A DNA stretch of 64,000 bases from Rhodococcus sp. ABRD24 (GTDB lineage Bacteria > Actinomycetota > Actinomycetes > Mycobacteriales > Mycobacteriaceae). Positions within the stretch are counted from its first letter, which is position 1, and each line of letters starts with the position of its first letter. Positions 23,476 through 39,692 of this stretch are shown here, piece by piece. The DNA is taken from positions 4,154,001 to 4,218,000 of the forward strand of contig NZ_CP035319.1 in the NCBI RefSeq assembly GCF_004328705.1, in the 5' to 3' direction. Below the pieces are notes generated by a model, which worked only from the letters and a program-made list of their open reading frames with translations, did no database searches and was not told the origin of the DNA. Both the position numbers and the translations under genes were made by a program.

Positions 23476-23539
23476 GGAAGCAGCCCCTGAGTCGGCTGGA
23501 TTCGACTGGTCGCATCCGGACAACCCGGCCAGCACCGGC

Positions 23540-25009
23540 TCAGGTCAGGGCGATGTACTTGGAGTCGAGATAGTCGCTGATGCCTTCACTGCCACCTTCG
23601 CGACCGATCCCGGACATCTTGACCCCGCCGAATGGTGCGGCGACGTCGGAGATGATGCCTCGATTGACTCCGACCATGCCGGCTCGCAGTGCAGTGGCCA
23701 CGCGTTTGCAGCGATCGATATCTCGGCTGTAGAAGTATGCGGCCAGCCCGTACTCGGTGGAGTTCGCGGCCGCGACGGCCTCGTTCTCGGTCTGGAAGGT
23801 GCTGATGATCGCGACTGGACCGAACACTTCCTCGCGGGTTGCCGGGGCATAGGCGTCGACCTGATCGAGGACGGTGGGCGGATAGAAGAACCCTTCGCCA
23901 TCGGGGATCTTGCCGCCCAGTCGTAGCCGTGCGCCGCTGGCGAGAGCGGACTCGACGATTCCCGCGACCGATGCACGCTGGTCGGCGCTGATCAACGGTC
24001 CGAGCGTCACTCCGGCGTCGTACCCCGCGCCGAGTCGGAGCGCTGCCATTTTCTCGGTGAGCTTCGTGGTGAACTCCTCGGCGATGGTCGAGTGGACGAG
24101 GAACCGATTGGCTGCGGTGCACGCTTCACCACCGTTGCGCATCTTCGCGGCGAATGCGCCCTCGACGGCGGCATCTACGTCGGCGTCGTCGAACACGAGG
24201 AACGGCGCATTTCCGCCCAGTTCCATGGATGTCCGCTGGACACGCTCGGCGGCCTGACGCAGGAGGATCTGCCCGACGCGAGTGGAACCGGTGAAGCTGA
24301 CCTTGCGGACTCGGCTATCCGACAGGATCGCGCCGGTCACGCCGCCGGCATTGGAGGTCGGAAGAACTGAAAGTACGCCCGCGGGTAGACCCGCTTCGGT
24401 GAGGACGTCGGCAAGCGCCAACATGGTCAGCGGGGTCTCGGACGCGGGTTTGACGATCATGACGTTGCCCGCCGCGAGTGCGGGCCCTATCTTGCGAGTG
24501 CCCATCGCCAGCGGAAAGTTCCACGGCGTGATGGCCAGGCATACGCCGAGGGGCTCGTGGGCGACGACGATCTGGCCCGTTCCGCCCGGTGACGTGGTGA
24601 CACGACCGTTGATGCGGGTGGCCTCCTCGGCGAACCATCGAAGGAAGTCTGCACCGTATCGCGCCTCGGCGAGGCTGTCAGGGAGTGCGCGACCGAGTTC
24701 GAGGGTCATGAGCATGGCGAACTCGTCAGTCCGCTCGACGAGAATTTCGTACGAGCGTCGCAGGATGTCGCTGCGCTCACGCGTCGGCGTCGCGGCCCAA
24801 ACGCTAGCGGCGGAGTGGGCAGTTTCTACTGCTCGAAGTGCGTCGTCGACAGTCGCGTCGGCCACGGATGTGAGAGTCCGCTCAGTGGCGGGGTCCGTGA
24901 CGTCGAACGCCGCGCCAGTGATGGACGGCACCGACTGGCCGCCGATGCGAAGCCCCGTCGGCAGGGTCCTGAGCAGCTGCTCAGCCGAGTCAGGGTAAGT
25001 CGAATTCAT
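23540..25009 (-). CDS. NAD(P)-dependent succinate-semialdehyde-type aldehyde dehydrogenase
   Basis: The 489-residue aldehyde dehydrogenase groups by motif with succinate-/glutarate-semialdehyde dehydrogenases (GabD type). Key parts are the cofactor region PWNFPLAMGTRKIGPALAAGN, FTGSTRVGQILL, the catalytic glutamate in LELGGNAPF (here MELGGNAPF), and the nucleophile cysteine in RNGGEACTAANRF. EEVFGPVA and the C-terminal PFGGVKMSGIGREGG complete the pattern. It would oxidise a short semialdehyde to a dicarboxylate that enters central metabolism, a fitting last step for a ring-cleavage pathway. It follows the first LLM monooxygenase gene by 31 bases and is probably in the same operon. Confidence 0.85.
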   Translation of the reverse strand: MNSTYPDSAEQLLRTLPTGLRIGGQSVPSITGAAFDVTDPATERTLTSVADATVDDALRAVETAHSAASVWAATPTRERSDILRRSYEILVERTDEFAMLMTLELGRALPDSLAEARYGADFLRWFAEEATRINGRVTTSPGGTGQIVVAHEPLGVCLAITPWNFPLAMGTRKIGPALAAGNVMIVKPASETPLTMLALADVLTEAGLPAGVLSVLPTSNAGGVTGAILSDSRVRKVSFTGSTRVGQILLRQAAERVQRTSMELGGNAPFLVFDDADVDAAVEGAFAAKMRNGGEACTAANRFLVHSTIAEEFTTKLTEKMAALRLGAGYDAGVTLGPLISADQRASVAGIVESALASGARLRLGGKIPDGEGFFYPPTVLDQVDAYAPATREEVFGPVAIISTFQTENEAVAAANSTEYGLAAYFYSRDIDRCKRVATALRAGMVGVNRGIISDVAAPFGGVKMSGIGREGGSEGISDYLDSKYIALT

Positions 25010-25040
25010 CTAGATTCCTATCAGCGGGCGGTATGCGTGG

Positions 25041-26186
25041 TCACCACGAGTAGTCGCGCGTCTCAGGCGGAGTCCACACTCCGGCCTCGCGCAGGTGGGC
25101 GAACACCGGAGCGAAGCCCTCGAGCTCCTCTGGGCTCCACAGCGGGAAGTTGACGAGAAGGTTGGTAGCGGCGGTGTTCTTCTTGATCGAGATGAGCTTC
25201 TCGGCTACCTGTTCGGGGGTGCCGATCAGCTTCAACATGGAGCCTGCGCCGCCGAATGCCATCGTGGCCTGCTCTTCGCCCATCGACTCGTACTGTGCGC
25301 GGGACGACTCGATCGACCCGAGGACGTCGGCAGCGATCTCCTTGGTCGCCGCTGGGTTCACCGACTTGCGGAGTTGCTCCCACTCCTCTTCCGCACGACC
25401 CTCCTCCTCTCGCACCAATGCGATGGCGAACGGGCAGGTCGCAACGCGACGACCGGTTGCGGCGGTCGCCTCGGCCAGACGTGTGTCGACGGCGCGGAGT
25501 GCGTCCTCGTCGGAGGCCAGCGTGACTAGCTGATCGCAGAACTGGGCGGCGAAGGCGGCGCCTGCGGGCGAGGCGCCCGCACTGACCAGTAGCGGATTGG
25601 GTTGCTGAACCGGACGAGGCATCTTGATTCGCCCGTGCACTTTGTAGTACTCGCCCTCGACGTCGATCGGCTCGATCTCGCTCCAGAGTTTGAAGACGAT
25701 GTCGGTGAACTCCGCCGCCATGTGATAGCGCTTGTCGTGCTCGACGAAGTCCTCGCCGAACAGTGCCGACTCGTCGGCGCTGAAACCGGTGACGACGTTC
25801 CATCCCCAACGTCCGTTGCTGAACGCGTCGAGGGTCGCACCCATGCGCGCGACATGCGCCGGCTTGTGATGGGTCGTGTGGAAAGTGGATATCACGCCGA
25901 TGTGCTCGGTGGCGGTCAGGAGCGCCATCGCGAGTAGGGGTGCGTGGTAGGCGGGAGCCTGGTGCCCACCGAGCTCGGCGGCACGCTGGTGCCCGGACCA
26001 GTTGTCGGCGATGAACAACGAATCGAAGCCGGTTCGCTCGGCGGCCTGTGCCAGCTCGACGAGATTCGCCTTGGTCATGTCCGGGGTGCGCTGAGCGGCC
26101 TCATCCGAGTAGAGGAAGTTTGTCTTTCCGGAGGGGAAGAAGTAGCCGAGATGCAGTTCACTGTCGTCGGAGGGGCGGGATTTCAC
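25041..26186 (-). CDS. Luciferase-like (LLM) FMN-dependent monooxygenase, paralogue 1
   Basis: The 381-residue product is a bacterial-luciferase-fold monooxygenase close to the RutA / dimethylsulfone / pyridine-monooxygenase branch. Typical segments are LGYFFPSG at the start, ERTGFDSLFIADNWSGHQ, and TEHIGVISTFHTTHHKPAHVARMGATLDAFSNGRWGWNVVTGF. MPRPVQQPNPLLVSAGASPAGAAFAAQFCDQ is the FMN-binding part. Such enzymes use FMNH2 from a separate reductase; one is encoded at 31093. It is closely similar to the protein at 33355-34509 throughout its length, so the pair arose by duplication. GTG 26186 has AGGAGT upstream. It precedes the semialdehyde dehydrogenase gene. Confidence 0.85.
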   Translation of the reverse strand: MKSRPSDDSELHLGYFFPSGKTNFLYSDEAAQRTPDMTKANLVELAQAAERTGFDSLFIADNWSGHQRAAELGGHQAPAYHAPLLAMALLTATEHIGVISTFHTTHHKPAHVARMGATLDAFSNGRWGWNVVTGFSADESALFGEDFVEHDKRYHMAAEFTDIVFKLWSEIEPIDVEGEYYKVHGRIKMPRPVQQPNPLLVSAGASPAGAAFAAQFCDQLVTLASDEDALRAVDTRLAEATAATGRRVATCPFAIALVREEEGRAEEEWEQLRKSVNPAATKEIAADVLGSIESSRAQYESMGEEQATMAFGGAGSMLKLIGTPEQVAEKLISIKKNTAATNLLVNFPLWSPEELEGFAPVFAHLREAGVWTPPETRDYSW

Positions 26187-26227
26187 GATGCGAACTCCTG
26201 ATCATTGAATAGGACGAATGGGATCCT

Positions 26228-26261
26228 GAGCGGTAACGCGGGAGGAGCGGTAACGCGGGAG
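26228..26261. repeat. Perfect 17-bp tandem duplication upstream of an LLM gene
   Basis: GAGCGGTAACGCGGGAG occurs twice head-to-tail (26228-26244 and 26245-26261), about 40 bases before the start of the first LLM monooxygenase gene. It may be a recent slip or a double regulator site. Confidence 0.6.
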
Positions 26262-26394
26262 GATTGAGAATCCCGTCGGGGGACCTCCTGCGGATCGGAG
26301 GCGCGGGCGCTGTCAACTGCCGCTTAGGTGGAAAGCAGTTCTTCGATCGTCGTGATCATCGACGGCGATGCCGTCTGTGATGGTCACCGGAGCG

Positions 26395-26964
26395 CTACTC
26401 GTCGGGAGAATCGGTGAAGATCGACTTCACGGGGGCGGCGAGTCCGAGGACGTGACCGATTGAAGTCGCCATGATGTAGTACCCGATCTGCAGCAGGACA
26501 CCGGCAGCTTGGTCGGCCCCGGCCTCCGCACTCAACCGTGCGAGGCTCTCGCGTGCTTGCTCCCATTCGCCGCGCGCGGCCGCTGCGGAGACAACTTGCA
26601 CAGCCGCTGCGCCTGCAGGGAGGTCAGGATGGTGCGGGTCGAGACTCTCGACCGCCGCGATCTCCTCACGAGTGAAGCTCAGGCGCAGAGCGCGATGCTC
26701 GTGCTGGAACAGTTCAGGCTCGGCATTGGTGGCTGCGGCGACGGCCAACGCGACGATCTCTCGGACGTTCTGGTCGACCGGAGCCGCCGAGGAGTCGGCG
26801 AACCCGACGAACGATCGAAGAGCGCCGTCGTTGTTGCCGAGGATCGCGAAGACGTCCCCGAGGTAGCCGAGGCGTTCGTACCGTGGACGCAGCAGGTCCT
26901 GCGATTCGGGTGTGAGCTCATCGAACTCGAGAGGGGTGATCGGCAGGTCGGTCGATTGCGTCAT
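26395..26964 (-). CDS. Carboxymuconolactone-decarboxylase-like (AhpD-fold) protein
   Basis: The 189-residue product has an AhpD/CMD-like helical fold: LRPRYERLGYLGDVFAILGNNDGALRSFVGFAD, then VDQNVREIVALAVAAATNAEPELFQHEHRA. The usual CxxC of peroxidase-type members is replaced (EPELFQHEH), so redox activity is unlikely and a lactone- or decarboxylase-type role fits better. It starts at ATG 26964, whose ATGA overlaps the TGA of the FAH-family gene, showing translational coupling. The substrate is unknown; in this setting it probably handles a ring-cleavage intermediate. Confidence 0.7.
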   Translation of the reverse strand: MTQSTDLPITPLEFDELTPESQDLLRPRYERLGYLGDVFAILGNNDGALRSFVGFADSSAAPVDQNVREIVALAVAAATNAEPELFQHEHRALRLSFTREEIAAVESLDPHHPDLPAGAAAVQVVSAAAARGEWEQARESLARLSAEAGADQAAGVLLQIGYYIMATSIGHVLGLAAPVKSIFTDSPDE

Positions 26965-27821
26965 GACACAGTCCAGTCGGTGGTTGTCGGGGCGAGGCTC
27001 TCGACACACTCGTTGCGTAGTTCGCCGAGTCCCGAGATGGTGGTCGTGAGCACTTGACCGGGGCGGAGCCACGGCTCGGGGTCTTGGCCCATGGCAATTC
27101 CGGGTGGAGTCCCGAGGAAGATCATGTCGCCGGGCTGCAATGCGATGACGGTGCTGATGTACGAGACCACGGTGGCGGGACTGAAGATCATGTCGGCGCC
27201 GGTGCCGTCCTGAACCCGAACGCCGTCGACGTCAGTGGTCAGTCGCATCTCCTGGACGGGGCCGGCATCTGTAGTGAGCCATGGGCCGATCGGCGTCATG
27301 GACTCCCAGATCTTGCCCATCAGCGGCGGCCGGTTACGGAACTGCCAGTCACGTACCCCGGTGTCGTTGCCGACGCAGTAGCCCGCGATGTGGTCTTCGG
27401 CCCGGTCGACGGGTATGTGGCGTCCCGCCGTGCCGATGATGGCGACGAGCTCGACCTCCCAGTCGTTGCTGACGCTCAGGCTCGAATGCGGAAGCATGAT
27501 CTGGTCGTTGGCACCGATGAGGCTCTCAGGGTATTTAGCGAAGATCGACGGGAACTCTGGTTGCGCCCGGCCGAGCTCGGCCGCGTGGGAGCCGAAGTTG
27601 AACCCGACCAGGAAGATCTTCGCCGACGACAGAGTCACGACCGGTGCGAGGTCCGTCGGTTCGAAGCTGATCGCCTCGCCGTCGGCGCGGGCCAGAGTCT
27701 CCCAGCCCTCGGTGTTGAGAAGGGCGCCAACGTCGGGCGAATCCAGCAGGATCGCGCTCGTCTCGGATTCCACGCGGGCTGCGCGGGTGCCGGTGGGGGT
27801 TCGCAAGGTTGCCAGACGCAT
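26961..27821 (-). CDS. FAH-family hydrolase/isomerase
   Basis: The 286-residue protein has the fumarylacetoacetate-hydrolase C-terminal fold: an IFLVGFNFGSHAAELG substrate/metal start, PESLIGANDQIMLP, the metal-binding DWEVELVAIIG, YCVGNDTGVRDWQ and GKIWESMTPIGPWL. The latter part has MIFLGTPPGIAMGQDPEPWL. Members cleave or isomerise acylpyruvates and 2-oxo-hept-3-ene-dioates formed from aromatic rings. It is the first gene of a minus-strand unit continuing to the CMD-like, LLM and dehydrogenase genes. The promoter region holds two copies of the cluster's palindrome. Confidence 0.85.
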   Translation of the reverse strand: MRLATLRTPTGTRAARVESETSAILLDSPDVGALLNTEGWETLARADGEAISFEPTDLAPVVTLSSAKIFLVGFNFGSHAAELGRAQPEFPSIFAKYPESLIGANDQIMLPHSSLSVSNDWEVELVAIIGTAGRHIPVDRAEDHIAGYCVGNDTGVRDWQFRNRPPLMGKIWESMTPIGPWLTTDAGPVQEMRLTTDVDGVRVQDGTGADMIFSPATVVSYISTVIALQPGDMIFLGTPPGIAMGQDPEPWLRPGQVLTTTISGLGELRNECVESLAPTTTDWTVS

Positions 27822-27911
27822 TGTTCGAAACCTCAGTTCGTTCGTGGGCTGGACTGATGAGGAGGTGCCGGGATGGAACGCCTCGTGTGCGCCGTCACAT
27901 CAGAAGTTACA

Positions 27912-27950
27912 CACCGTATTGCGGGATGGGCAACCCGCATTGCGGGATAT
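27912..27950. promoter_or_regulatory. Paired operators between the FAH-family and IclR genes
   Basis: Site 1 (27912-27928) has the half ACCGTA-T-TGCGGG and site 2 (27932-27950) the perfect CCCGCA-T-TGCGGG. Their centres (27919 and 27940) are 21 bases apart, two helical turns. The same motif pair recurs at two other divergent promoters of the island, so this is probably the binding site of the IclR-type regulator encoded at 28069. Confidence 0.65.
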
Positions 27951-28068
27951 GATCGTACAAGGTTGGCTGCTCACGGTTTCGTCGCTCCGCATTGACGTGC
28001 GGTCGAACTTGGCGGGGTCAAGGGTGGTCTGTATACGGGGATAGGCTGAGGGCGACGACGGGAGGACG

Positions 28069-28890
28069 GTGAAGCATGTGTCCACGGAAATGAGCATGGA
28101 TGCGCAACCCGGGGGGCAGGAATCGATCGGGCGACCTGGTGTGCAGTCTGTTCAGCGGGCCATCCAGCTACTCGAGGTTCTCGCCGCCGCTCAGTCCCCT
28201 CAGACGATGCAGAGTCTGGCGCTCAAGTTGGGATGCAGTCCGAGCACTGCCCACCGGATCGCGGTCACGCTCGCGCAGGGCAATCTGCTCGAGTTCAATC
28301 CGCTGACGAAGCGATACAGCTTGGGAGTCGGCATCACCAAGCTTGCGCAACGTCGGGCCGAGCAAATAGACCTCGGCTCGGTTGCGCAGCCATACATGGA
28401 CGAATTGCGCGAGCAGGTTCTGGAGACCACGTCATTGTGGACGCGCGCCGGCGACTCCAAGATCTGTGTTGCCTGTTCGGACAGCACATACACAATTCGT
28501 CAATACCTGCAGATCGGCACTCGGGTGCCGATGGCGGATCTCAGCGCGGGATCGCGGGTTCTGCTCGCGGACGAAGATCCAGAGTCGTTACGCGCGCTCA
28601 TGGCGGATTGGTATCCGGAGATGGCGAGCGACGAGATCAGCGACTTCCTTTCGAGTACTGCGTCGGTGCGTAGCACGGGCCTTTCGCTGCTGCCTGAAGA
28701 GAATGCGAACCGGGTACATCCGGATGTTTCGACGATGGCTGCGCCGGTGTTCGACAGTAGCGGGACGATCGTGGCTGCGTTGGTAGTCGCTGGACCCGTC
28801 ACTCGGTTCACGGCGGATGCCATGAAGCGTGCGGCAGGTGCTGTGCTCGGCTGCGCGCGCGACATCTCGACTGCCCTTGGTGCCGGTTAG
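28069..28890 (+). CDS. IclR-family regulator of the first catabolic island
   Basis: The 273-residue product has an N-terminal winged helix of IclR type (VQSVQRAIQLLEVLAAAQSPQTMQSLALKLGCSPSTAHRIAVTL). A C-terminal effector-binding domain follows, containing DLSAGSRVLLADEDPESL and a late MAAPVFDSSGTIVAALVVAGP. These proteins sense aromatic or other small acids. It is divergent from the FAH-family operon and sits amid the cluster, with its own promoter next to the paired operators. The start is taken at GTG 28069 just after GGGAGGA; GTG 28078 is possible. A terminator follows. Confidence 0.88.
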   Translation: MKHVSTEMSMDAQPGGQESIGRPGVQSVQRAIQLLEVLAAAQSPQTMQSLALKLGCSPSTAHRIAVTLAQGNLLEFNPLTKRYSLGVGITKLAQRRAEQIDLGSVAQPYMDELREQVLETTSLWTRAGDSKICVACSDSTYTIRQYLQIGTRVPMADLSAGSRVLLADEDPESLRALMADWYPEMASDEISDFLSSTASVRSTGLSLLPEENANRVHPDVSTMAAPVFDSSGTIVAALVVAGPVTRFTADAMKRAAGAVLGCARDISTALGAG

Positions 28891-28935
28891 TCTGCACGCT
28901 GGGTCGCGAGATCTGAGCGGGGGCGACTGCGTGAA

Positions 28936-28974
28936 CACTGCGATCGGCCGGGAAACACCCGGCCGATCGCAGTG
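28936..28974. terminator. Hairpin terminator (17-bp perfect stem)
   Basis: CACTGCGATCGGCCGGG at 28936-28952 pairs perfectly with 28958-28974 over a five-base loop. It lies between the convergent IclR-type gene and the DapA-family gene. Confidence 0.8.
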
Positions 28975-28998
28975 ACTGGATTCCGTTCAGCCGTCGCG

Positions 28999-29940
28999 TC
29001 AGATGGACTGCACGGGGAACGTCTCGCCCTGAATCACCGCATCGGCTTGGGCCAGCAGCTTCTGTATCTTTTCCAACCCTTCGGGTGTCGGCGTGATGAG
29101 CGGAGAACGCACCGCCGGGGACGCTAGTAGGCCCTTCTGGTGTAGAACCCACTTGGCCGGAGCCGGGTTCGTCTCGACGAACAGGAGATCGGTAAGCGGG
29201 TGCAGAGCGTAGTGAATCTCTCGCGCGCCTGCGAAGTCGCCTGCCTGCCAACGCTCGAACATGGTGGCGACGGCCTTGGGTGCAAGGTTTGCGGTGGCGC
29301 TGATGAACCCGCTCCCGCCGAGCGCCATCAGCGGCAGGCACAAGAGCTCGATGCCGGACCATACGAGGAAGTCGCGACCAGTCGCGTGCAGGACCCGTGA
29401 GAAGTGCTCGAAATCCTTGGTGGTCTCCTTGATTCCGACGATGTTCTCGTGCGCGCTGTTCAGGCGTGCGACGGTTTCTGGTGCCAGATCGACGGCGGTT
29501 CTCGACGGAACGTTGTAGATCACGATCGGCATGTCGGGGAACTCGGTGGCCACGGTCGAGTACCAGCGGAACAGTGCTTCCTGCGTCGGGCGGGCGTAGT
29601 AGGGCGTGATTACGAGCGCGGCGTCTGCACCGGCCTCGACTGCGGCCGCCGTGACCTCCAGGGTTTCGTCGAGCTTGGCAGAACCGGTGCCCGCCAGGAA
29701 CGGAACGGAGTCGTCCACGACCTCGGCGACGGTTCGGATCGCGGCAATTCGCTCGGCGACGGTCTGGGAGCTCGGTTCGCCGGTCGAGCCGCCGATCGAG
29801 ACGCCATGGGTGCCGCTGTCGAGGTGCCAGCGGGTGAGAGTGGCCAGGCTGCCGAGGTCCAGGCTCATGTCGTCGGCGAACGGCGTGATCAGGGGTGAAA
29901 TCGAGCCGGTGATCGACTGGGGGGTGCTACGGAACTTCAT
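28999..29940 (-). CDS. DapA-family (class I) lyase/aldolase
   Basis: The 313-residue protein has the dihydrodipicolinate synthase / N-acetylneuraminate lyase fold: SGTHGVSIGGSTGEP near the start, ALVITPYYARPTQEALFRWY, the tyrosine motif VIYNVPSRTAVDLA, and the Schiff-base lysine Lys171 in VGIKETTKDF. In catabolic clusters such proteins are often hydratase-aldolases or decarboxylases that release pyruvate or an aldehyde. The true reaction here is unknown. Its ATG at 29940 overlaps the TGA of the upstream ornithine-cyclodeaminase-like gene (ATGA), so the two are translated together. Confidence 0.85.
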   Translation of the reverse strand: MKFRSTPQSITGSISPLITPFADDMSLDLGSLATLTRWHLDSGTHGVSIGGSTGEPSSQTVAERIAAIRTVAEVVDDSVPFLAGTGSAKLDETLEVTAAAVEAGADAALVITPYYARPTQEALFRWYSTVATEFPDMPIVIYNVPSRTAVDLAPETVARLNSAHENIVGIKETTKDFEHFSRVLHATGRDFLVWSGIELLCLPLMALGGSGFISATANLAPKAVATMFERWQAGDFAGAREIHYALHPLTDLLFVETNPAPAKWVLHQKGLLASPAVRSPLITPTPEGLEKIQKLLAQADAVIQGETFPVQSI

Positions 29941-30872
29941 GCGGTCGGTGCTCCTGTGTGATTGGCGGCGGCGACGTTTGCCACGGCGAGGTCGGCGAGT
30001 CCCATGCCCATCCCCTTGAAAACAGTCAGTCGTGGGGACGTAGGGCGCGAGGTGGCGCCAGTCAGGATGTCGCCGAGGGTGGCGACCGAAGACCAGTCGT
30101 CGCCGAAGTGGTCGATCAGCTCTTTCGACGCATTGCGTGCATTCGTCAGGTTGTCCACGACGGTGAGGTCGGAGTCGTCCAGGATGGCGCTGTCGAATTC
30201 CGCCGCGTGGGGGAGGATGGCGCCGATCGCATTGAAATGTGCGCCGTTCGCCAAGATGCCGCGTGGGAAGAACGGTTCGCGAGCGCGCGTGACTATGGTG
30301 ACGATGGGGGAGTCGGCTACCGCCTCCTCCAGCGTGTTCGCGGTTTCCGCCGAGATTTCCAGATCGGTGCCGATCTGCTTGGTGAACGCCTTCCGGCTGG
30401 CAGGGGTCGGGCTCCACACGCGTACCCGGCGCAGTGACCGGACGCAGGCTACCGCTGCGACCTGCTGGAGTGCCTGTCGGCCAGTGCCGATGATGGTCAT
30501 CTCGTCGGCGTCGGGCGCGGACAACGCATCGGTCGCCACTCCAGACACGGCAGCGGTGCGGATTACGCCGAGTGTGACCGACTGCATCATCGCCAGGATG
30601 CGTCCGTTGGTCGAATCGAACAGGCTCAGCAGCGACTCGGCGCCAACGGGAGTGTTGACCCAGGTCTTGAATGCGACGCGACCGGTCTCGTGATCGAATC
30701 CGCCGAGCGCGTGGGCGGCGCTCGATGGATCCCATGTGGTCATGGTCTTGGCTATGTTGCCCGCTCGGCCTCGCGCCTCGTGGTCAATCGCTGCTGCTAC
30801 GGCGGAAATTGCTTCGCTCAGCTGAACGGATCGATCAACGTCGGCGTCGGTGAGCCAGGGTGGTTGATGCAC
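29937..30872 (-). CDS. Ornithine cyclodeaminase / mu-crystallin-family protein
   Basis: The 311-residue product shows the family pattern: an N-terminal dimerisation part, GRVAFKTWVNTPVGAESLLSLFDSTNGRILAMM, RTAAVSGVATDALS, and a Rossmann region with EMTIIGTGRQALQQVAAVACV. IVTIVTRAREPFF follows, and the late NGAHFNAIGAILPHAAEFD. Members are NAD(P)-dependent amino-acid or imine dehydrogenases, cyclodeaminases or lyases. A role on an amine, imine or amino-acid intermediate would fit an N-containing substrate. GTG 30872 has AGGAGG 8 bases upstream. It is the first gene of a two-gene unit with the DapA-family gene. Confidence 0.85.
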   Translation of the reverse strand: MHQPPWLTDADVDRSVQLSEAISAVAAAIDHEARGRAGNIAKTMTTWDPSSAAHALGGFDHETGRVAFKTWVNTPVGAESLLSLFDSTNGRILAMMQSVTLGVIRTAAVSGVATDALSAPDADEMTIIGTGRQALQQVAAVACVRSLRRVRVWSPTPASRKAFTKQIGTDLEISAETANTLEEAVADSPIVTIVTRAREPFFPRGILANGAHFNAIGAILPHAAEFDSAILDDSDLTVVDNLTNARNASKELIDHFGDDWSSVATLGDILTGATSRPTSPRLTVFKGMGMGLADLAVANVAAANHTGAPTA

Positions 30873-30934
30873 GGGTGCGCCTCCTGTGATGGCGGTTGTT
30901 TCGGCTTCGTCCTGCGACGGCTACAAGGTAGTCC

Positions 30935-30973
30935 ATCCCGCAATGCGGCATAGACATCCCCTATAGCGGATTG
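30935..30973. promoter_or_regulatory. Paired operators between the OCD-like and flavin reductase genes
   Basis: Site 1 at 30935-30951 reads ATCCCGCAATGCGGCAT, and site 2 at 30956-30971 reads ATCCCCTATAGCGGAT. Centres are about 21 bases apart, as in the other two divergent regions of this island. The motif matches that at 27934-27946. Confidence 0.65.
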
Positions 30974-31092
30974 TACCGTGGTGTAATGCCAGTCACTACC
31001 CCTGTGCGGGCCGGCCCACCAACGTCTGTCAGGGCCATCCGAGGCCGGTCAGGCCGTTCCTTCAATGCCACTCGAAATCTGGAGATCCGACT

Positions 31093-31602
31093 ATGAGATT
31101 CAATGACGCACAGCTTCAGCAGCCGATCGATATCGAACGGTTCCGTGAAGCGATGACCAGGTTCCCCAGCGGCGTCACCATCGTCACCACCACCGACTCG
31201 ACCGGAAAGCCGCGCGGTTTCACCGCGACCTCTTTCTGTTCGCTGTCCGCCGAACCGGCCCTCGTCCTGGTGTGCGTCGCCAACACCGCCGAATGCCACG
31301 AAGTGTTTCTCTCCGCAGACCGATGGAACGTCCACTTCGTTGCGCCGGGCCAGACCGATCTCGCCATCCGTTTCGCCACGCGTGGGGCCGACAAGTTCGG
31401 CGGTGGCGTGGCGAAGACCGACGCGCTCGGCCAGCCGCACATCCTCGATTCGAGCGTCACGCTGCGGTGCGCCGCGTTTTCCAAGCATCCCGGCGGAGAC
31501 CACACCATCCTCATCGGGCGCGTCGATGACGTCGAGTTCGGAAACGACGAACCGACCGTGTACCACATGCGTGAGTTCCGCAGCTTGTCCCAGGCTTCGT
31601 GA
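31093..31602 (+). CDS. NAD(P)H:flavin reductase partner of the LLM monooxygenases
   Basis: The 169-residue protein is a flavin-reductase-domain (DIM6/HpaC-like) enzyme: FREAMTRFPSGVTIVTTTDSTGKPRGFTATSFCSLSAEPALVLVCVANT with the flavin-binding TATSFCSLS. FAVNIL-type sequence is replaced by WNVHFVAPGQ, and GDHTILIGRVDDVEF is near the end. It supplies FMNH2 to flavin monooxygenases such as the two LLM proteins here. GGAG lies before the ATG at 31093. It is followed by the carboxylesterase gene on the same strand, 65 bases on, and its promoter carries the paired operators. Confidence 0.85.
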   Translation: MRFNDAQLQQPIDIERFREAMTRFPSGVTIVTTTDSTGKPRGFTATSFCSLSAEPALVLVCVANTAECHEVFLSADRWNVHFVAPGQTDLAIRFATRGADKFGGGVAKTDALGQPHILDSSVTLRCAAFSKHPGGDHTILIGRVDDVEFGNDEPTVYHMREFRSLSQAS

Positions 31603-31667
31603 CCCGCGGTATGACGAACTGCAGGTCAGTTAGCACCCGAAAGTAGAATCTCGAAAGGATCTGTCGC

Positions 31668-33269
31668 ATGACCGTGACCAGCACCGCTTTGATCGATTCC
31701 GGAGAACTGCGAGGACGCGCGACCGACGACGGCGCGGTCCGTTCGTTCCTCGGCGTTCCGTACGCGGCACCGCCTGTCGGAGACTTCCGCTGGCGCGAAC
31801 CGCAGCCGCCGTCGCCGTGGTCAGGGACGCGCGACGCACTACAGCATGCGGCGTCTGCGCCGCAGGACGCACCGCCTGCCGACTCGATCTACTACGGGGG
31901 AGAGCGGACCTTCAGCGAGGACTGTCTGTATCTCAACGTCTGGACCGGCGGCGCTGACGAGCAGCGCCCGGTCCTCGTGTGGTTCCACTTCGGCGCCTAC
32001 CAGTTCGGGTCGTCGGCGAATCCGATGTACGACGGTGAGCGATTGGCCCGGCTCGGCTGCACCGTGGTCACCGTCAACCATCGTCTCGGACGACTTGGAT
32101 TTCTCGCGCATCCGGATTTGTCGGCAGAGTCCGACGCGCACGTGTCGGGAAACTATGGACTGCTGGATCAGATCGCCGCGCTCGAGTGGGTGCAGCGGAA
32201 CATCGCTGCGCTCGGTGGCGATCCCGGGAATGTGACGATCGGCGGCGTCTCGGCAGGGGCCAACTCGGTGCACGTGCTCCGTGTGTCCCCCCTCGCCGAG
32301 GGCCTGTTTCACAAGGCAATTGCGCACAGTGGACCGGGCCTGGCATATGAAATGGAGGGGCCGGGACATCCATCGGGTCCGCAGACGCTGGCGGCCGGTG
32401 AAGAGTCCGGCGTCGAACTGTTGCGCCTGCTCGACATCGACAGCCTGTCCCAACTGCGCGCTACTCCACTGGAGAAGGTCAACTCGGTGATGCTCCCGCG
32501 TGCGGGAGGCGCGTGGAACTTCGCCCTTGCGCCGGGTGCTGAGATCAGCCTGCACCTGTTCGACAGCGCTTATCCCGTGGTAGACGGGTATGTTCTGCCG
32601 GAGTCCCCGTTGACGGCGTATCAGTCCGGCCGGGTGCATGATGTGCCATTCCTCGTCGGCAACGTCGGAAACGAGTCATCCGGGCTGCCGTACGTGCCGG
32701 CGTTGCCTGCTTATCTGGAACACCTTCGACAGACCTTCGGTGCTGCCGCCGATCGCGCGCTCGAGGCGTACCCCGCAGTCGACGACGCGAGTGCCCAGCA
32801 TGCGAGCTGGGAGCTCGAAGCCGATCGCATCTTCAACTGGTCGAACTGGGCTGCCGCCCGGGGGCACGCCGCACACTGCTCCTCGCCGCTCTGGCACTTC
32901 CGCTTCTTCCGTGAGCCTCCGATCGCGGCCGGCGACCGCATCATCGAAGCCTCATACTCCCGGGCCTTCCACGGGTCGGACGTGCTGTACGTATTCGGTA
33001 CGTTCGACACGGCACGACCTACCTGGGAATGGCGTCGAACAGACCGGGAATTGTCGGACACGATGATGCGGGCCTGGGCCAACTTCGTCACCTACGGGGA
33101 CCCGAACGGTAATGGCGTGCCGACTTGGCCGAGGTTGGACCCATCGGAGCCGACGACCATGCACTGGGACGAGAGCATCAGGGTCGGCGACACGGGATAT
33201 CGTGACGATCGCATGGCGCTGCTAGACGAACTCAACGGCTGGCGACATTCAGAGGGTGCGACGACCTGA
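31668..33269 (+). CDS. Type B carboxylesterase
   Basis: The 533-residue product is a type B carboxylesterase/lipase (alpha/beta hydrolase). Conserved pieces are GVPYAAPPVGDFRW at the N-terminus, EDCLYLNVW, the oxyanion region VWFHFGAYQFGS, the nucleophile elbow GGVSAGANSVH, the acid region NVGNESS, and a C-terminal AFHGSDVLYVFG with the catalytic histidine. It would hydrolyse an ester, amide or carbamate, perhaps the entry step for a substituted substrate of this pathway. GAAAGGA precedes the ATG. The frame ends close to a strong terminator. Confidence 0.88.
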   Translation: MTVTSTALIDSGELRGRATDDGAVRSFLGVPYAAPPVGDFRWREPQPPSPWSGTRDALQHAASAPQDAPPADSIYYGGERTFSEDCLYLNVWTGGADEQRPVLVWFHFGAYQFGSSANPMYDGERLARLGCTVVTVNHRLGRLGFLAHPDLSAESDAHVSGNYGLLDQIAALEWVQRNIAALGGDPGNVTIGGVSAGANSVHVLRVSPLAEGLFHKAIAHSGPGLAYEMEGPGHPSGPQTLAAGEESGVELLRLLDIDSLSQLRATPLEKVNSVMLPRAGGAWNFALAPGAEISLHLFDSAYPVVDGYVLPESPLTAYQSGRVHDVPFLVGNVGNESSGLPYVPALPAYLEHLRQTFGAAADRALEAYPAVDDASAQHASWELEADRIFNWSNWAAARGHAAHCSSPLWHFRFFREPPIAAGDRIIEASYSRAFHGSDVLYVFGTFDTARPTWEWRRTDRELSDTMMRAWANFVTYGDPNGNGVPTWPRLDPSEPTTMHWDESIRVGDTGYRDDRMALLDELNGWRHSEGATT

Positions 33270-33305
33270 CACCACCGGCCGACCGCTGAAGTATTCACAG
33301 ACGAA

Positions 33306-33338
33306 CAGGCCCGGAGAGCTGAGTGCTCTCCGGGCCTG
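33306..33338. terminator. Hairpin terminator (14-bp perfect stem)
   Basis: CAGGCCCGGAGAGC at 33306-33319 pairs perfectly with 33325-33338 over a TGAGT loop. It separates the convergent carboxylesterase and second LLM genes. Confidence 0.8.
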
Positions 33339-33354
33339 TCCATCCGTGGGGTGA

Positions 33355-34509
33355 CTACCAGGAGTAGTCGCGCTCGCTCGGCGGGCGCCACATCCCGGCG
33401 TCGCGCAGGTGATCCATGACTGGGGCGAACGATTGAAGTTCGGTCGGATTCCACAGCGGGAAGTTCAGTAGAACGTTGTTGGTGGATGTCTGTGTCTTGA
33501 GGTCGATGAGCTGTTGGGCGACCTGCTCGCTGGTGCCGAAGAGCTTGAGGATCCCTTGTCCGCTGCCCCATGCGCGGGCCGCCGCGCTGTGGCCTTGGTC
33601 TGCGAACAGTGCGCGCACCGAGTCGATTCCGCCCAAGATGTCGGCGGCTAGTTCCATGGTGGCCTCTTCGTTCAAGGAGCGGACGAGTCGCTCGTACGTC
33701 TCCTCGGCCTCGCCTTCGCCGTCACGCACGATGACGATTGTGAACGGTGTGGTTCCCAGCGGTGCGGTACGTCCCGCTTCGTGAACGGCCGCGTCGACGC
33801 GGCGGCTCGTCTCCTGCACCTTTTCGATTGTGTTCCCGGCGACGACTATCTGGTCGCAGTGTTGAGCGGCGAACTTCATTCCCGCAGGCGACCCGCCGGC
33901 GCTCACCAGGAGGGGGTGCGGCTGTTGCACCGGGCGCGGTGCCTTGATGCGTCCCTCGACCCGATAGAAGTTGCCGTGGACGTCGATAGGGTCGTCTTCA
34001 GACCAGAGTCTGCGGACAATCTCGACGAACTCGCCGGCCATCGCATAGCGCTCGTCGTGCTCTACGAGATTCTCGGCGCCGAACAGCTTGGCCTCGGGGT
34101 CGCCGAATCCGGTGACGACATTCCATCCCCACCGGCCTCCGCTGAACGCATCGAGAGTGGCTCCCATCCGCGCGATGTGGGCAGGTTTGTGATGCGTCGT
34201 GTGCATGGTTGTGATCACCCCGATGTGCTCGGTCGCGGCGAACAGGCCCATAGCAAGTAGCGGCGCGTGGTACTTAGGCGATTGATGCCCCGCGCGCTCG
34301 GCTTCACGCTGATGACCAGACCAGCTGTCAGCGATGAACAACGCATCGAAGCCGGTCTGCTCAGCGGCCCGGGCCATGTCCAGAAACACGGACTTCGACA
34401 ACGGTGGAGTCGCCCGTGCTGCTTCGTCCGACCAGACGTGGTCGGTTTGGCCGGTAGGGAAGAAGTAGGTCAGCCCGAGTTCGTCCGGGTTCTCGTTCTG
34501 GCGCTTCAT
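33355..34509 (-). CDS. Luciferase-like (LLM) FMN-dependent monooxygenase, paralogue 2
   Basis: The 384-residue product parallels the one at 25041-26186: LGLTYFFPTGQTDHVWSDEAA at the start, AEQTGFDALFIADSWSGHQ, and TMHTTHHKPAHIARMGATLDAFSGGRWGWNVVTGFGDPE. PRPVQQPHPLLVSAGGSPAGMKFAAQHCDQIV follows, and both end with a shared tail RDYSW. The fold and FMN-binding segments are intact, so both copies are probably active. They may act on successive intermediates or related substrates. It lies 36 bases after the RibBA-like gene, and the two appear to share the promoter near 35690. Confidence 0.85.
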   Translation of the reverse strand: MKRQNENPDELGLTYFFPTGQTDHVWSDEAARATPPLSKSVFLDMARAAEQTGFDALFIADSWSGHQREAERAGHQSPKYHAPLLAMGLFAATEHIGVITTMHTTHHKPAHIARMGATLDAFSGGRWGWNVVTGFGDPEAKLFGAENLVEHDERYAMAGEFVEIVRRLWSEDDPIDVHGNFYRVEGRIKAPRPVQQPHPLLVSAGGSPAGMKFAAQHCDQIVVAGNTIEKVQETSRRVDAAVHEAGRTAPLGTTPFTIVIVRDGEGEAEETYERLVRSLNEEATMELAADILGGIDSVRALFADQGHSAAARAWGSGQGILKLFGTSEQVAQQLIDLKTQTSTNNVLLNFPLWNPTELQSFAPVMDHLRDAGMWRPPSERDYSW

Positions 34510-34545
34510 TCGTGTCTCATTTCCTTTCAGGCGATTTCTGTTGCG

Positions 34546-35613
34546 TCAAGATGTTCGGGCTTGCAGTGCGACACAGGTGCGTTGTGTCGGCTGCACTGGA
34601 TGGATTCTGTCGATGGCGAGCTGAGCCAGCAGCCGACGGTGAATCGGCTCGAGTGTGGTACGTCCGGCGTTGCCGGGGCAGGCACCTCCAGCTGCGGCGG
34701 CCGGCCGTCGGATGTACACGACGACTCCGTGGCCGGCCCGAACGATGGCGCTCATCGCGCGATCCAGGCCTTCCTCGCATTCGCAGGAGTCCGTAAAGAA
34801 GGTTTGCCCTAGGCATTCGTCGTGCACGTACACGGGAGTTGAGGCGGCGGTTTGAGGAGTGCCGAAGGTGAAGACGACATGTTCGACGGGCTGCCCAGGC
34901 AGATAGTAGGTGGTGCCGACGAACACCCCGTGACGCATGTGCGTCGTGAACGGCGGACCTTCGGCCACGAAGGCTTCACGATCGGCGTACCAGTCGACGA
35001 TGTCGCCGATGTCGAGTGCGACGAGACCGTGGTGGTCAGCGAAACTGCGCGCTTCGGCCGCATCGGCGAGTTCGGCTGGCCGGGCCTCGCTGACCAGGTG
35101 CCCGATTCCGCAGGCGAGCGAGACGCCGGCGATCCTCGCGAGATCGACTGCAGCATGAGCGTGGTCGCGGTGGGTTCGGACGCCGGCACTGCTCGTGCCG
35201 CGCGGCTGGACGTGCCCGGGGCGCGTGAACGACGCTGCTGTGCTCTGCGGGTCGGTGAGCAGTCGCATCGTGGTTGCGCGATCCGCTGCCGAGATGCCGG
35301 TTCCGATGCCCGCTGCCGCGTCGACGGTGACTGTATAACCGGTCGCGTCGTTGCCGGTCGGATCGGCCCCGGACATCACGCTCAATCCAAGGCGTGCGCA
35401 CTCGGTCGACGGCAGCGCTACCTCGAGGTATCCGGACGAGTGCCGCACCAGGAAAGCGACGGTGGACGTCGTCGCAGATGCTGCGGCACACACGAGAACC
35501 GCAGTCGGCTGGTGGAGCTCAACGGTGTCGGCGATCAGGAGGATCGGCCGACCGTTCTCCAATTCGCGTGCAGCTCGTTCGACAGCGATGTCGTGGTCAT
35601 CGGTGCGCTTCAT
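34546..35613 (-). CDS. Divergent RibBA-like protein (degenerate RibB domain, truncated RibA domain)
   Basis: The 355-residue protein aligns over two riboflavin-synthesis domains. The N-terminal part keeps the RibB fold (VAFLVRHSSGYLEVALPSTEC, GISAADRATTMRLL, RPGHVQPRG, AAVDLARIAGVS). It has, however, lost the DREnEGD metal-binding motif, where ILLIADTVELHQPTAVLV is found. The C-terminal part resembles GTP cyclohydrolase II with VYVHDECLGQTFFTDSCEC, keeping Cys267, Cys277 and Cys279 for zinc. It stops short of the usual EGRGIGL and nucleotide-binding tail. It therefore cannot be a normal RibBA. It may boost flavin supply for the LLM enzymes, or be a hydrolase recruited to open an N-heterocycle. 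ATG 35613 has AGGAG upstream. Confidence 0.7.
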   Translation of the reverse strand: MKRTDDHDIAVERAARELENGRPILLIADTVELHQPTAVLVCAAASATTSTVAFLVRHSSGYLEVALPSTECARLGLSVMSGADPTGNDATGYTVTVDAAAGIGTGISAADRATTMRLLTDPQSTAASFTRPGHVQPRGTSSAGVRTHRDHAHAAVDLARIAGVSLACGIGHLVSEARPAELADAAEARSFADHHGLVALDIGDIVDWYADREAFVAEGPPFTTHMRHGVFVGTTYYLPGQPVEHVVFTFGTPQTAASTPVYVHDECLGQTFFTDSCECEEGLDRAMSAIVRAGHGVVVYIRRPAAAAGGACPGNAGRTTLEPIHRRLLAQLAIDRIHPVQPTQRTCVALQARTS

Positions 35614-35684
35614 CGTGAGGCTCTCCTGCCGCGCTGATCTTAGTGACGAGCGCTACAGTACCAGCGTTCCGTCTAGCAATATAT

Positions 35685-35763
35685 ATATCCCGCACCGCGG
35701 GATATTAGCTTGTTTGCCTGTTTGCATCCCGTTGGGCGGGTTGAGCATCCCGTAATAAGGATT
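35685..35763. promoter_or_regulatory. Three operators between the RibBA-like and cupin genes
   Basis: A perfect palindrome ATATCCCGC-ACC-GCGGGATAT lies at 35685-35705. ATCCCGTTGGGCGGGTT follows at 35726-35742 and ATCCCGTAATAAGGAT at 35747-35762; the last two have centres 21 bases apart. They match the sites at 27912-27950 and 30935-30973. The AT-rich ATATATAT just before the first site could be a -10 region. Confidence 0.65.
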
Positions 35764-35831
35764 GTATGGTGAGGTTGCCGACACTCTGGGTGTCGAGATC
35801 GATGAAGCCCACAACCGAAGGGAGCGTGGCG

Positions 35832-36950
35832 ATGCCCGATGTGCTCGCAACTTTTCTTGATCAGACCGAGGTCGACGAGGTCACCTCGCCGGTGTGGCCC
35901 GCCCTCAAGGTGAGTCGCGGACAGATCGAGGCTGAGGTGGCACGCCTCGCTGCCTTGGCTCAGCCTGCCGACGGTGACGTCCGTCGATCGCTGATCGTCC
36001 ATCCGAATTCGCGGTTCCGGAGCCTGACCCCGACCATCCGCGTCGGCATCGAGGTCGTTCTGCCGGGTGAGAAGACCGCGCCCACGACGCGAAGCAGCTC
36101 GAGTGTCGAGCTCTGCATCGGTGGTACTGGCATTGTCGAGGTTGACGGAAGCCGATTCGAGACGTCGAAGCATGATACGTGGACGGTCCCGAATCTGACC
36201 GCCAAGTGGTACGAGGCCACCGGCGACGAGCCCTATGTGCGACTCGTCTTCAGCGACGCTCCGCTCCTCGAATACCTTGCAGCGCACTATGTCAACGACG
36301 ACTATCGTGCCGCGGTCGACAGCGAGAGTGGGCACGAGCGTGAGCCGATGGCTGATTTCGTCTATGAGATGCCGTCCGGTGGCGGTGCGCTGAAGACCTA
36401 CGCTGGCCTGATGGACCCAGAAGTGGTTCGTCATCGACCAAAGTGCTGGAAGTGGACCGAAGTCAAGGCCTATCTGGACGGCCTCGACAAATCGGGCCCG
36501 GACTACCGTTCGGCGATCATTGCGCTCCTCTGGGACGACGCGACCGGCCGTGTCAACGGCAGCACCAACACCCTCACCGCCTTCATCTCGGGTGGTTTCG
36601 ACCCGACTTGGGTCGAAGGCAAGTACCGGATGGCGCGCTCGCACCGACACAGCATGGCTGCCATCAACTATGCGTTCGCCGGCGACTGGCAGACTGTGGT
36701 CGAGGGCAAGAAGATTCGTTGGAGTGCAGGCGATCTGGTCTTGACTGCCCCGGCCTGGGCGCTGCACACCAACGGCTCGTGCTCGCAGCAGCCGTACACC
36801 TTCGCGATGCAAGATGCCGCGCTGGTTGCTTCGATGAACGCATCCGTCGTTCAGGAGTATGTTGGCCAACAGCCGATTCTCATCGGCTCGCATTCGGGCT
36901 TCAACACCAGCATTGACACCGAGCATGCAGACGAGCTGGTCGATCTGTAG
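35832..36950 (+). CDS. Double-cupin protein, gentisate-1,2-dioxygenase-like
   Basis: The product of about 372 residues has two cupin domains in the layout of gentisate 1,2-dioxygenase. In those enzymes the N-terminal cupin holds the iron ligands (HxH...H). Here that cupin reads APTTRSSSSVELCIGGTGIVEVDG and lacks the histidines. The C-terminal cupin has SHRHSMAAINYAFAG (His271, His273) and ALHTNGS (His312), so the metal site has moved or only that one is kept. The ATG at 35832 has AGGGAG 7 bases upstream and is preferred to 35766, which lies in the operator region. It may cleave an aromatic or enediol ring intermediate; the substrate is unknown. Confidence 0.7.
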   Translation: MPDVLATFLDQTEVDEVTSPVWPALKVSRGQIEAEVARLAALAQPADGDVRRSLIVHPNSRFRSLTPTIRVGIEVVLPGEKTAPTTRSSSSVELCIGGTGIVEVDGSRFETSKHDTWTVPNLTAKWYEATGDEPYVRLVFSDAPLLEYLAAHYVNDDYRAAVDSESGHEREPMADFVYEMPSGGGALKTYAGLMDPEVVRHRPKCWKWTEVKAYLDGLDKSGPDYRSAIIALLWDDATGRVNGSTNTLTAFISGGFDPTWVEGKYRMARSHRHSMAAINYAFAGDWQTVVEGKKIRWSAGDLVLTAPAWALHTNGSCSQQPYTFAMQDAALVASMNASVVQEYVGQQPILIGSHSGFNTSIDTEHADELVDL

Positions 36951-36959
36951 CTGGTGTCT

Positions 36960-37830: not shown

Positions 37831-37866
37831 GGATCACGGACCAGTTCAAGCAAGTGCCTTGTTGTC

Positions 37867-38055: not shown

Positions 38056-38188
38056 GTGCGAGCCCGGCCTTCCTCCCGAGTGCGGCTCCGCGATACGAAA
38101 CTGACCGCACAGGAGTTAGCGTACCCTCATTTTCTGAGCCGGCGCAGATTGCCGGCCCCCGAGGACCCGGGCAATCTGCGTCGAGGCG

Positions 38189-39580: not shown

Positions 39581-39692
39581 GAACGGAAGCGTCGCGGGCG
39601 GCGTGCTCGCCGGGTATCCCTCGTGGAGGGGTACGTCGGACCCCAGGATTCTGGGGGTTCACAAGATCTGACCGGTCGGTCACAATACGGCG

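What the first reader, a model, noticed from the sequence alone, without database searches (positions are those of the whole stretch)
23540..36950. Uncharacterised catabolic island with paired luciferase-like monooxygenases
Two LLM monooxygenases, a flavin reductase, semialdehyde dehydrogenase, FAH, CMD, DapA-family lyase, OCD-like protein, cupin dioxygenase, carboxylesterase and RibBA-like protein occur together with shared operators. I know no described pathway with this set. LLM enzymes of this branch open N-heterocycles such as uracil and pyridine, and the OCD- and SSADH-type steps would suit an N-containing ring, so an N-heterocycle (perhaps ester-linked) is a reasonable guess. The substrate remains inference.
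Basis: inference. Interest (0 to 1): 0.75.

Follow-up and report, generated by a model that had tools for sequence, protein, structure and literature searches.

The report
Mobile catabolic island, dead riboflavin enzyme
A block of twelve genes that probably lets a bacterium break down an unknown ring-shaped compound has been inserted between two conserved genes, appears to be switched by one regulator, and carries next to one of its two oxygen-using enzymes a vitamin B2 enzyme that has lost its active-site motifs yet keeps an intact gene.

Summary
The gene list is right: twelve genes fill 23540-36950. They lie in a 14.4 kb insertion (about 23468-37868) missing at this site in the genus relatives compared. 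The two LLM monooxygenases are distinct types; both recur with the type-B carboxylesterase in at least seven named actinobacterial genera. Attached lower-pathway genes differ between loci (homoprotocatechuate-like, gentisate-type, benzoylformate-decarboxylase-like). I read the island as a horizontally acquired catabolic module: LLM2 probably makes an ester that the carboxylesterase hydrolyses, and the rest leads towards pyruvate and succinic semialdehyde. The substrate stays unknown; an N-heterocycle is possible but not favoured. The most unusual part is the RibBA-like gene. It lacks catalytic motifs of both domains and keeps two RibB motifs. Similar degenerate copies exist in three other sources: directly beside LLM2 in one, on an LLM2-bearing contig in the other two. 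Another degenerate RibB occurs in Rhodococcoides kyotonense. This suggests a non-catalytic partner, as the lumazine protein is for luciferase.

The parts
23468..37868 (.). inserted segment (genomic island)
   Evidence: nucleotide similarity to four genus relatives stops at 23467-23468 and resumes at 37869-37871; the two edges are 16-18 bases apart there
23540..25009 (-). aldehyde dehydrogenase, succinic-semialdehyde-dehydrogenase-like
   Evidence: Aldedh 518.5 bits; best NCBIfam model TIGR01780 SSADH 528.1, below its cut-off 646.35
25041..26186 (-). LLM1, luciferase-like monooxygenase
   Evidence: PF00296 179.3 bits
26395..26961 (-). carboxymuconolactone-decarboxylase-like protein
   Evidence: PF02627 25.1 bits, cut-off 23
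26961..27821 (-). FAH-family hydrolase/isomerase/decarboxylase
   Evidence: PF01557 188.4 bits; HpaG C-terminal model 147.6, below cut-off 276.4
28069..28890 (+). IclR-family regulator
   Evidence: IclR_C and HTH_IclR
28999..29946 (-). DapA-family lyase/aldolase
   Evidence: TIGR02313 HpaI-NOT-DapA 344.6 (cut-off 396.7); TIGR00674 dapA 284.5 (cut-off 206.15); two further genes of the genome pass the dapA cut-off
29937..30872 (-). OCD/mu-crystallin family enzyme, overlaps the DapA gene
   Evidence: PF02423 134.5 bits
31093..31602 (+). flavin reductase (presumed FMNH2 source for the LLMs)
   Evidence: PF01613 128.3 bits
31668..33269 (+). type-B carboxylesterase
   Evidence: PF00135 332.6 bits; GVSAG motif at residue 193
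33355..34509 (-). LLM2, luciferase-like monooxygenase, 59% identical to LLM1
   Evidence: PF00296 181.9 bits
34546..35613 (-). degenerate RibBA (pseudoenzyme), 36 bp upstream of LLM2
   Evidence: PF00926 160.6 bits and partial PF00925 45.4 bits; catalytic motifs lost
35766..36950 (+). bicupin protein with a His-Arg-His...His site in its C-terminal half
27911..27948 (.). operator pair, FAH|IclR promoter (27911-27927, 3 mismatches; 27932-27948, 1 mismatch)
30935..30972 (.). operator pair, OCD|flavin reductase promoter (30935-30951, 1 mismatch; weak 30956-30972, 5 mismatches)
35687..35763 (.). operators, RibBA|cupin promoter (35687-35703, 1 mismatch; weak 35726-35742, 4, and 35747-35763, 5 mismatches)

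Best explanation
A horizontally acquired catabolic island, controlled by its own IclR regulator, for a ring compound that carries or can be turned into an ester. Shown by sequence: the insertion, the gene content, the common operators, and the recurring set LLM1 + LLM2 + carboxylesterase. Inferred: the IclR protein binds the operators; the flavin reductase feeds FMNH2 to both LLMs; LLM2 inserts oxygen beside a carbonyl (Baeyer-Villiger type) and the carboxylesterase hydrolyses the ester; LLM1 and the bicupin oxygenate and open the remaining ring; FAH, OCD and the DapA-type aldolase shorten the product to pyruvate plus a semialdehyde, probably succinic semialdehyde, which the aldehyde dehydrogenase oxidises. 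The RibBA-like protein no longer makes flavin precursors and probably serves as a non-catalytic accessory of this flavin-hungry system.
For: Insertion into a conserved GT87-NUDIX-TypA neighbourhood. Operators in three divergent promoters, with pairs spaced 21 bp, echoed in Gordonia. Of 10 loci with at least 67% identity to LLM2 in the genome scan, 8 carry LLM1 and the carboxylesterase, in 7 of them with the carboxylesterase within 100 bp of LLM2 by alignment boundaries; the same neighbours occur on a Streptomyces chartreusis plasmid. LLM chemistry: an LLM turns progesterone into testosterone acetate (PMC12239570, abstract and passages). Homoprotocatechuate-like back end: the DapA protein scores best with TIGR02313, FAH second-best with the HpaG model, and the Nocardioides currus cluster has an HpaH-like gene at 347.9 of 351.5 bits.
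Against: No island protein reaches the NCBIfam cut-off of a model for the proposed role; the DapA protein passes the ordinary dapA cut-off. FAH scores higher for 2,4-didehydro-3-deoxy-L-rhamnonate hydrolase (165.3, cut-off 500) than for HpaG (147.6). In two of the 10 LLM2 loci (Gordonia L013, Tsukamurella L015) the carboxylesterase is not downstream of LLM2; in Gordonia it is on another contig, and in Tsukamurella neither it nor LLM1 was found in the 10 kb fetched. An eleventh locus (L029), whose LLM is 56% identical to LLM2, has OCD, FAH and a flavin reductase but no carboxylesterase hit. L025-L028 and the Rhodococcus-type loci have LLM1 without LLM2 in the DNA fetched. No diketocamphane monooxygenase (the type II Baeyer-Villiger reference) is named among the PDB matches of either LLM. 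An OCD enzyme suggests a nitrogen-containing intermediate that a purely benzenoid scheme does not need. No transporter family was found among the twelve genes.
Confidence: 0.4

Rival explanations
1. N-heterocycle catabolism: one LLM opens an N-containing ring as RutA, PyrA (pyridine) or TgnA (trigonelline) do, the product is hydrolysed, and OCD, DapA and SSADH finish it.
For: RutA is among the PDB matches of both LLMs. OCD-family and SSADH-like genes are present. An M24 protein distantly like ectoine hydrolase (58.8 of 613 bits) sits in the Acrocarpospora cluster. PyrA and TgnA are recalled, not compared here.
Against: No amidase, formamidase or amidohydrolase family among the island genes. 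RutA model 116.3 and 106.5 bits against cut-off 498.3. Related loci carry gentisate and 3-hydroxybenzoate type genes.
Confidence: 0.26
2. Catabolism of a sulfur compound: LLMs of the DszA/SfnG branch cleave C-S bonds.
For: DszA is the second-best PDB match for both LLMs; TIGR04021 SfnG 146.1 and 153.7 bits.
Against: Both below the SfnG cut-off 382.95; no desulfinase or sulfur-transport family among the island genes.
Confidence: 0.08
3. Tailoring part of a secondary-metabolite cluster rather than catabolism; the neighbouring FAD oxidase and LuxR regulator resemble bagremycin/ferroverdin proteins.
For: Below-cut-off similarity of 38189-39580 and 39693-40832 to BagK/FevA1 and BagY/FevT.
Against: That pair lies outside the insertion and occurs in a genus relative without the island at this site (L074); no biosynthetic core gene was found among the twelve genes; enzymes typical of degradation dominate.
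Confidence: 0.05
4. Unrelated accessory genes gathered by chance in an insertion hot spot.
For: Three of 13 genus relatives have a larger gap (3.0-3.8 kb) at the same place, so the site accepts genes.
Against: The same set in Gordonia and partial sets in other genera; one operator type in all three divergent promoters.
Confidence: 0.03

Closest known systems
pdc cluster of Caenibius tardaugens (LLM acting as Baeyer-Villiger oxygenase on progesterone; PMC12239570, abstract and passages)
   Same: an LLM in a small regulated catabolic cluster
   Different: four genes only: a type I BVMO, the LLM and two regulators; substrate is a steroid
Pyridine (Pyr) and trigonelline (Tgn) LLM pathways (recalled, from no call)
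   Same: LLM plus flavin reductase plus SSADH-type enzyme
   Different: they use one LLM and an amide or formamide hydrolase; here two LLMs, a carboxylesterase, OCD, DapA and bicupin, and no such hydrolase found
Homoprotocatechuate (Hpa) lower pathway
   Same: FAH-type, DapA-type (nearest model TIGR02313) and semialdehyde-dehydrogenase-like genes; HpaH-like gene in a related locus
   Different: no extradiol dioxygenase family other than the cupin was found in the island; no Hpa-model score in the window reaches its cut-off
lux operon with rib genes and lumazine protein in Photobacterium (PMC10049116, passages)
   Same: riboflavin-synthesis genes, and a riboflavin-synthase homologue used as a binding protein, linked to a luciferase
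   Different: there derived from riboflavin synthase and chromophore-binding; here derived from RibBA, in a catabolic island, ligand unknown
Arabidopsis RIBA isoforms, two of three of which lost bifunctional activity (PMC3509567, title and start of abstract in a search listing)
   Same: degenerate RibBA paralogues are kept
   Different: plant isoforms; here catalytic motifs of both domains are gone and the gene is tied to an LLM

Membership tests
Luciferase-like monooxygenase (PF00296) | score over the curated cut-off | tested here: met
   179.3 and 181.9 bits, cut-off 27.9
NtaA/DmoA subfamily (TIGR03860) | score over cut-off 279.7 | tested here: not met
   195.1 and 219.4 bits
RutA pyrimidine monooxygenase (TIGR03612) | score over cut-off 498.3 | tested here: not met
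   116.3 and 106.5 bits
Dimethylsulfone monooxygenase SfnG (TIGR04021) | score over cut-off 382.95 | tested here: not met
   146.1 and 153.7 bits
Type II Baeyer-Villiger monooxygenase system | LLM-type oxygenase with a separate flavin reductase gene | tested here: met
   definition from PMC12239570 passages
Type II Baeyer-Villiger monooxygenase system | ketone to ester activity | not testable with these tools
   needs an enzyme assay
LLM N-heterocycle pathway (Pyr/Tgn type, definition recalled) | amide or formamide hydrolase in the cluster | tested here: not met
   no such family among the 12 island genes
Homoprotocatechuate lower pathway | HpaI-type DapA protein over the TIGR02313 cut-off | tested here: not met
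   344.6 against 396.7; the dapA model, 284.5, passes its 206.15
Bifunctional RibBA | RibB DDEDRENEGDL and GHTE motifs, RibA HEGRGIG and DTVDAN motifs (their catalytic role is recalled) | tested here: not met
   absent in the window protein, N. nova, P0125 and G. polyisoprenivorans; present in the genome's other RibBA (L069) and, with small variations, in L066-L068
Gentisate 1,2-dioxygenase (TIGR02272) | score over cut-off 442.1 | tested here: not met
   57.6 bits
Gentisate-dioxygenase-like bicupin | three histidines of the metal site (role recalled) | tested here: met
   H293, H295, H334 invariant in 7 of 7 cupins aligned, two of them gentisate-dioxygenase-like
Succinic semialdehyde dehydrogenase (TIGR01780) | score over cut-off 646.35 | tested here: not met
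   528.1 bits; two other genes of the genome score higher, also below

The most novel reading that the evidence does not exclude
The RibBA-like gene is a pseudoenzyme recruited by a luciferase-family monooxygenase system. Such clusters first carried a working extra RibBA to raise flavin supply, as the Streptomyces and Rhodococcus plasmid copies still seem to. In the lineage of the window, Nocardia and Gordonia copies, and perhaps separately in Rhodococcoides kyotonense, both active sites were lost while two motifs of the RibB half (GIS-[AG]-DRA-like and RPGH) were kept. The protein now binds a flavin precursor, a phosphate ester or the LLM itself, as a sensor or carrier: a counterpart of the lumazine protein in a degradation pathway.
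Probability: 0.3. Interest if true: 0.72.

Novelty: new variant of a known kind. Interest (0 to 1): 0.5.

Why it matters
The set LLM1 + LLM2 + carboxylesterase occurs in at least seven named actinobacterial genera, and my searches found no pathway for it, so one biochemical study would annotate many genes that some sources now call dimethylsulfone monooxygenase. A palindromic operator of known position gives a direct readout for finding the inducing substrate. If the dead RibBA is functional, it would show a riboflavin-biosynthesis enzyme recruited as a non-catalytic part of a flavin monooxygenase system outside bioluminescence.

Tried and rejected
Looked for a described cluster with this set: searches gave no paper. 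One search gave two papers; the relevant one, on skatole (PMC13101512, passages), concerns a cluster built on a group E monooxygenase and does not match. (15 of 232 papers listed) led to the lumichrome commentary (PMC12752717, part 1 of 2 read); the genes it names (P450, TPP enzymes, molybdoprotein, Rieske and extradiol dioxygenases) do not match. One search (trigonelline; 20 of 89 listed) showed nothing relevant. One search (strain JS3073) gave three papers with one occurrence each, not opened. led to the lux-rib paper.

Considered the RibBA-like gene a decaying pseudogene. For decay: it has the lowest identity of the eleven genes compared between window and Gordonia (55.1%), the highest dN (0.372) and 28 gapped columns. 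Against: open frames in four sources, and dN/dS 0.165, like the carboxylesterase, IclR, FAH and CMD genes (0.170-0.178); dS exceeds 1 for all eleven, so the ratio is rough. Considered a single origin of all degenerate RibB copies: the tree joins R. kyotonense with the other four at support 90/64, with a long-branch warning, so neither one loss nor two is shown. The AlphaFold model of the RibBA-like protein (mean pLDDT 74.6, pTM 0.66) has confident stretches in the RibB half and low confidence at residues 81-104 and at the C-terminal end; it was not compared with other structures. The genus of the window was not identified. The confidence of the best explanation was lowered from 0.42 to 0.40, and the N-heterocycle rival raised by 0.01, on recheck, because of loci L013, L015 and L029.
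Full report
WHAT IS THERE. Twelve genes occupy 23540-36950 (see parts). Several expected motifs are present: GVSAG in the carboxylesterase, GIKE in the DapA protein, GEAC and ELGG in the aldehyde dehydrogenase, GTGRQ in OCD (their roles are recalled). LLM1 and LLM2 are 59% identical. The genome has 18 PF00296 places, so LLM genes are common here, but this pair is not: of 121 genomes searched, own included, only one other genome had a match to LLM2 at E <= 1e-50. In the longer stretch fetched from it (L012) that gene is closer to LLM1, 72%.

THE INSERTION. In all 13 other genomes of the genus that were searched, the GT87 gene and the TypA gene that flank the island lie close together: about 1.2 kb apart in 10 of 13, and 3.0-3.8 kb in three. 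In the window they are 18.2 kb apart. I fetched four of the 13 for alignment. In all four, similarity ends at window 23467-23468 and resumes at 37869-37871, and in the relatives these edges are 16-18 bases apart. The insert is about 14.4 kb. Island G+C is 0.639, against 0.655 upstream and 0.673 downstream. The FAD oxidase and LuxR genes at 38189-40832 lie outside the insert; one of the four relatives (L074) has them.

REGULATION. The palindrome ATCCCGCANTGCGGGAT occurs with one mismatch in each of three divergent promoters: FAH|IclR, OCD|flavin reductase and RibBA|cupin. These are the only sites with at most one mismatch in the 5.1 Mb genome; two sites with two mismatches lie elsewhere. The pattern came from these promoters, so the count shows specificity, not independent discovery. 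Independent support comes from Gordonia polyisoprenivorans. Locus L026 has 3 matches with up to 3 mismatches against a shuffle mean of 0.14 (0 of 200 shuffles reached 3), and two of the three lie in the orthologous promoters. L013 has none at 3 mismatches, but at 4 mismatches its cupin|RibBA promoter has two sites 21 bp apart. The window has pairs with the same 21 bp spacing in all three promoters (27911/27932, 30935/30956, 35726/35747). The members of these pairs other than the two one-mismatch sites 27932 and 30935 have 3 to 5 mismatches. At 5 mismatches the whole window has 55 matches, so single weak members mean little and the weight rests on the spacing. No site with up to 5 mismatches was found in the LLM1-CMD gap. 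That the IclR protein binds these sites is inference.

RELATIVES. A genome scan with the LLM2 alignment gave 53 loci, of which 20 (L013-L032) are at 55% identity or more. Of these 20, 12 carry the carboxylesterase. Ten of them (L013-L021, L024) are at least 67% identical to LLM2; 8 of the 10 also carry LLM1 and the carboxylesterase, and in 7 the carboxylesterase starts within 100 bp of the end of LLM2. The two without are Gordonia L013, whose LLM1 and carboxylesterase are on another contig (L026), and Tsukamurella L015, whose contig begins 88 bases before LLM2 and shows neither in the 10 kb downstream. L029, best matched by LLM2 at 56%, has no carboxylesterase hit and is not among the ten. A tree of 111 LLM proteins separates the 36 LLM2-type rows, window included, by one branch (SH-aLRT 98); the other rows, LLM1 of the window among them, form several groups. 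G. polyisoprenivorans has 11 of the 12 window genes on two contigs; the aldehyde dehydrogenase was not found in the DNA fetched. In Rhodococcoides kyotonense and Williamsia muralis, LLM1, OCD, DapA, FAH, flavin reductase and a bicupin occur, with no LLM2 or carboxylesterase in the DNA fetched. A Streptomyces chartreusis plasmid has, in a stretch of about 16 kb, IclR, RibBA, flavin reductase, LLM2, carboxylesterase, an M24 protein, LLM1, an ABC transporter, a cupin, FAH and a maleylpyruvate isomerase. Other loci carry a benzoylformate-decarboxylase-like TPP enzyme (258.7 of 493 bits), a 3-hydroxybenzoate-6-hydroxylase-like enzyme (369.7 of 459), a gentisate-dioxygenase-like cupin (248.4 of 442.1) and, in Nocardioides currus, an HpaH-like protein (347.9 of 351.5). 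None of these reaches its cut-off, so they are likenesses, not identifications. My reading is that the LLM module prepares a compound and different hosts attach different lower pathways for benzenoid acids.

MECHANISM. LLM2 and the carboxylesterase are neighbours in 7 of 10 LLM2 loci, on the S. chartreusis plasmid and, convergently, in the window, and an LLM-catalysed Baeyer-Villiger reaction giving an ester is demonstrated elsewhere (PMC12239570, abstract and passages). I therefore infer that LLM2 makes the ester that the carboxylesterase cleaves. The FAH, DapA (nearest model TIGR02313) and aldehyde dehydrogenase genes resemble the homoprotocatechuate route to pyruvate and succinic semialdehyde (route recalled), though no Hpa-model score in the window reaches its cut-off and the DapA protein passes the ordinary dapA cut-off, as do two other genes of the genome. 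OCD is the piece this scheme explains least; an imine or amino acid step is likely, which keeps an N-containing substrate alive. The bicupin keeps the three histidines of gentisate-type dioxygenases, but in its C-terminal half.

THE RIBBA-LIKE PROTEIN. The genome has another RibBA at C1:4977067, with its motifs intact, and this one. In the window protein the RibB acidic motif, the GHTE motif and the following glutamate are replaced, and the RibA half lacks its HEGRGIG and DTVDAN motifs. GISAADRA, RPGH and three RibA cysteines remain. The same state is seen in N. nova SH22a, a protein of unnamed source (P0125) and G. polyisoprenivorans (GISAGDRA there), at 69, 47 and 57% identity to the window protein. 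In the window and in Gordonia the gene lies 36 and 14 bp from LLM2. In S. chartreusis and two Rhodococcus plasmids the cluster RibBA keeps these motifs with small variations. R. kyotonense has a shorter RibB-only protein without the acidic and GHTE motifs but with TTGISGADRA and RPGH. dN/dS is 0.165 between window and Gordonia, with saturated dS. The precedent for rib genes beside a luciferase system, and for a riboflavin-synthase homologue used as a binding protein, is Photobacterium (PMC10049116, passages).

VERDICT. Observation confirmed and sharpened. It is a real, acquired, apparently co-regulated catabolic island and a new variant of a known kind. The substrate is unassigned; an N-heterocycle is one candidate among several. 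The pseudo-RibBA is the most surprising part.

Noticed in passing
36951-37868, minus strand: Frame-broken remnant at the right end of the insert; one frame reads like the C-terminal end of a PHBH-type FAD monooxygenase (by eye, motif recalled; ORF 36901-37431 has no Pfam hit; translations).
   Followed up: partly
38189-40832: FAD oxidase and LuxR regulator resembling BagK/FevA1 and BagY/FevT, below cut-offs; found in one of four genus relatives fetched.
   Followed up: partly
L022 14607-15197: Rhodococcoides kyotonense has a RibB-only degenerate protein in its LLM1 cluster.
   Followed up: partly
L019 9322-9402: A 27-residue stretch 89% identical to the C-terminal end of the S. chartreusis RibBA lies just before the flavin reductase, perhaps a remnant of a cluster RibBA.
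   Followed up: no
37869-38085: Stretch conserved in the four relatives between the insertion point and TypA; one minus-strand frame is a short lysine-rich open frame.
   Followed up: no
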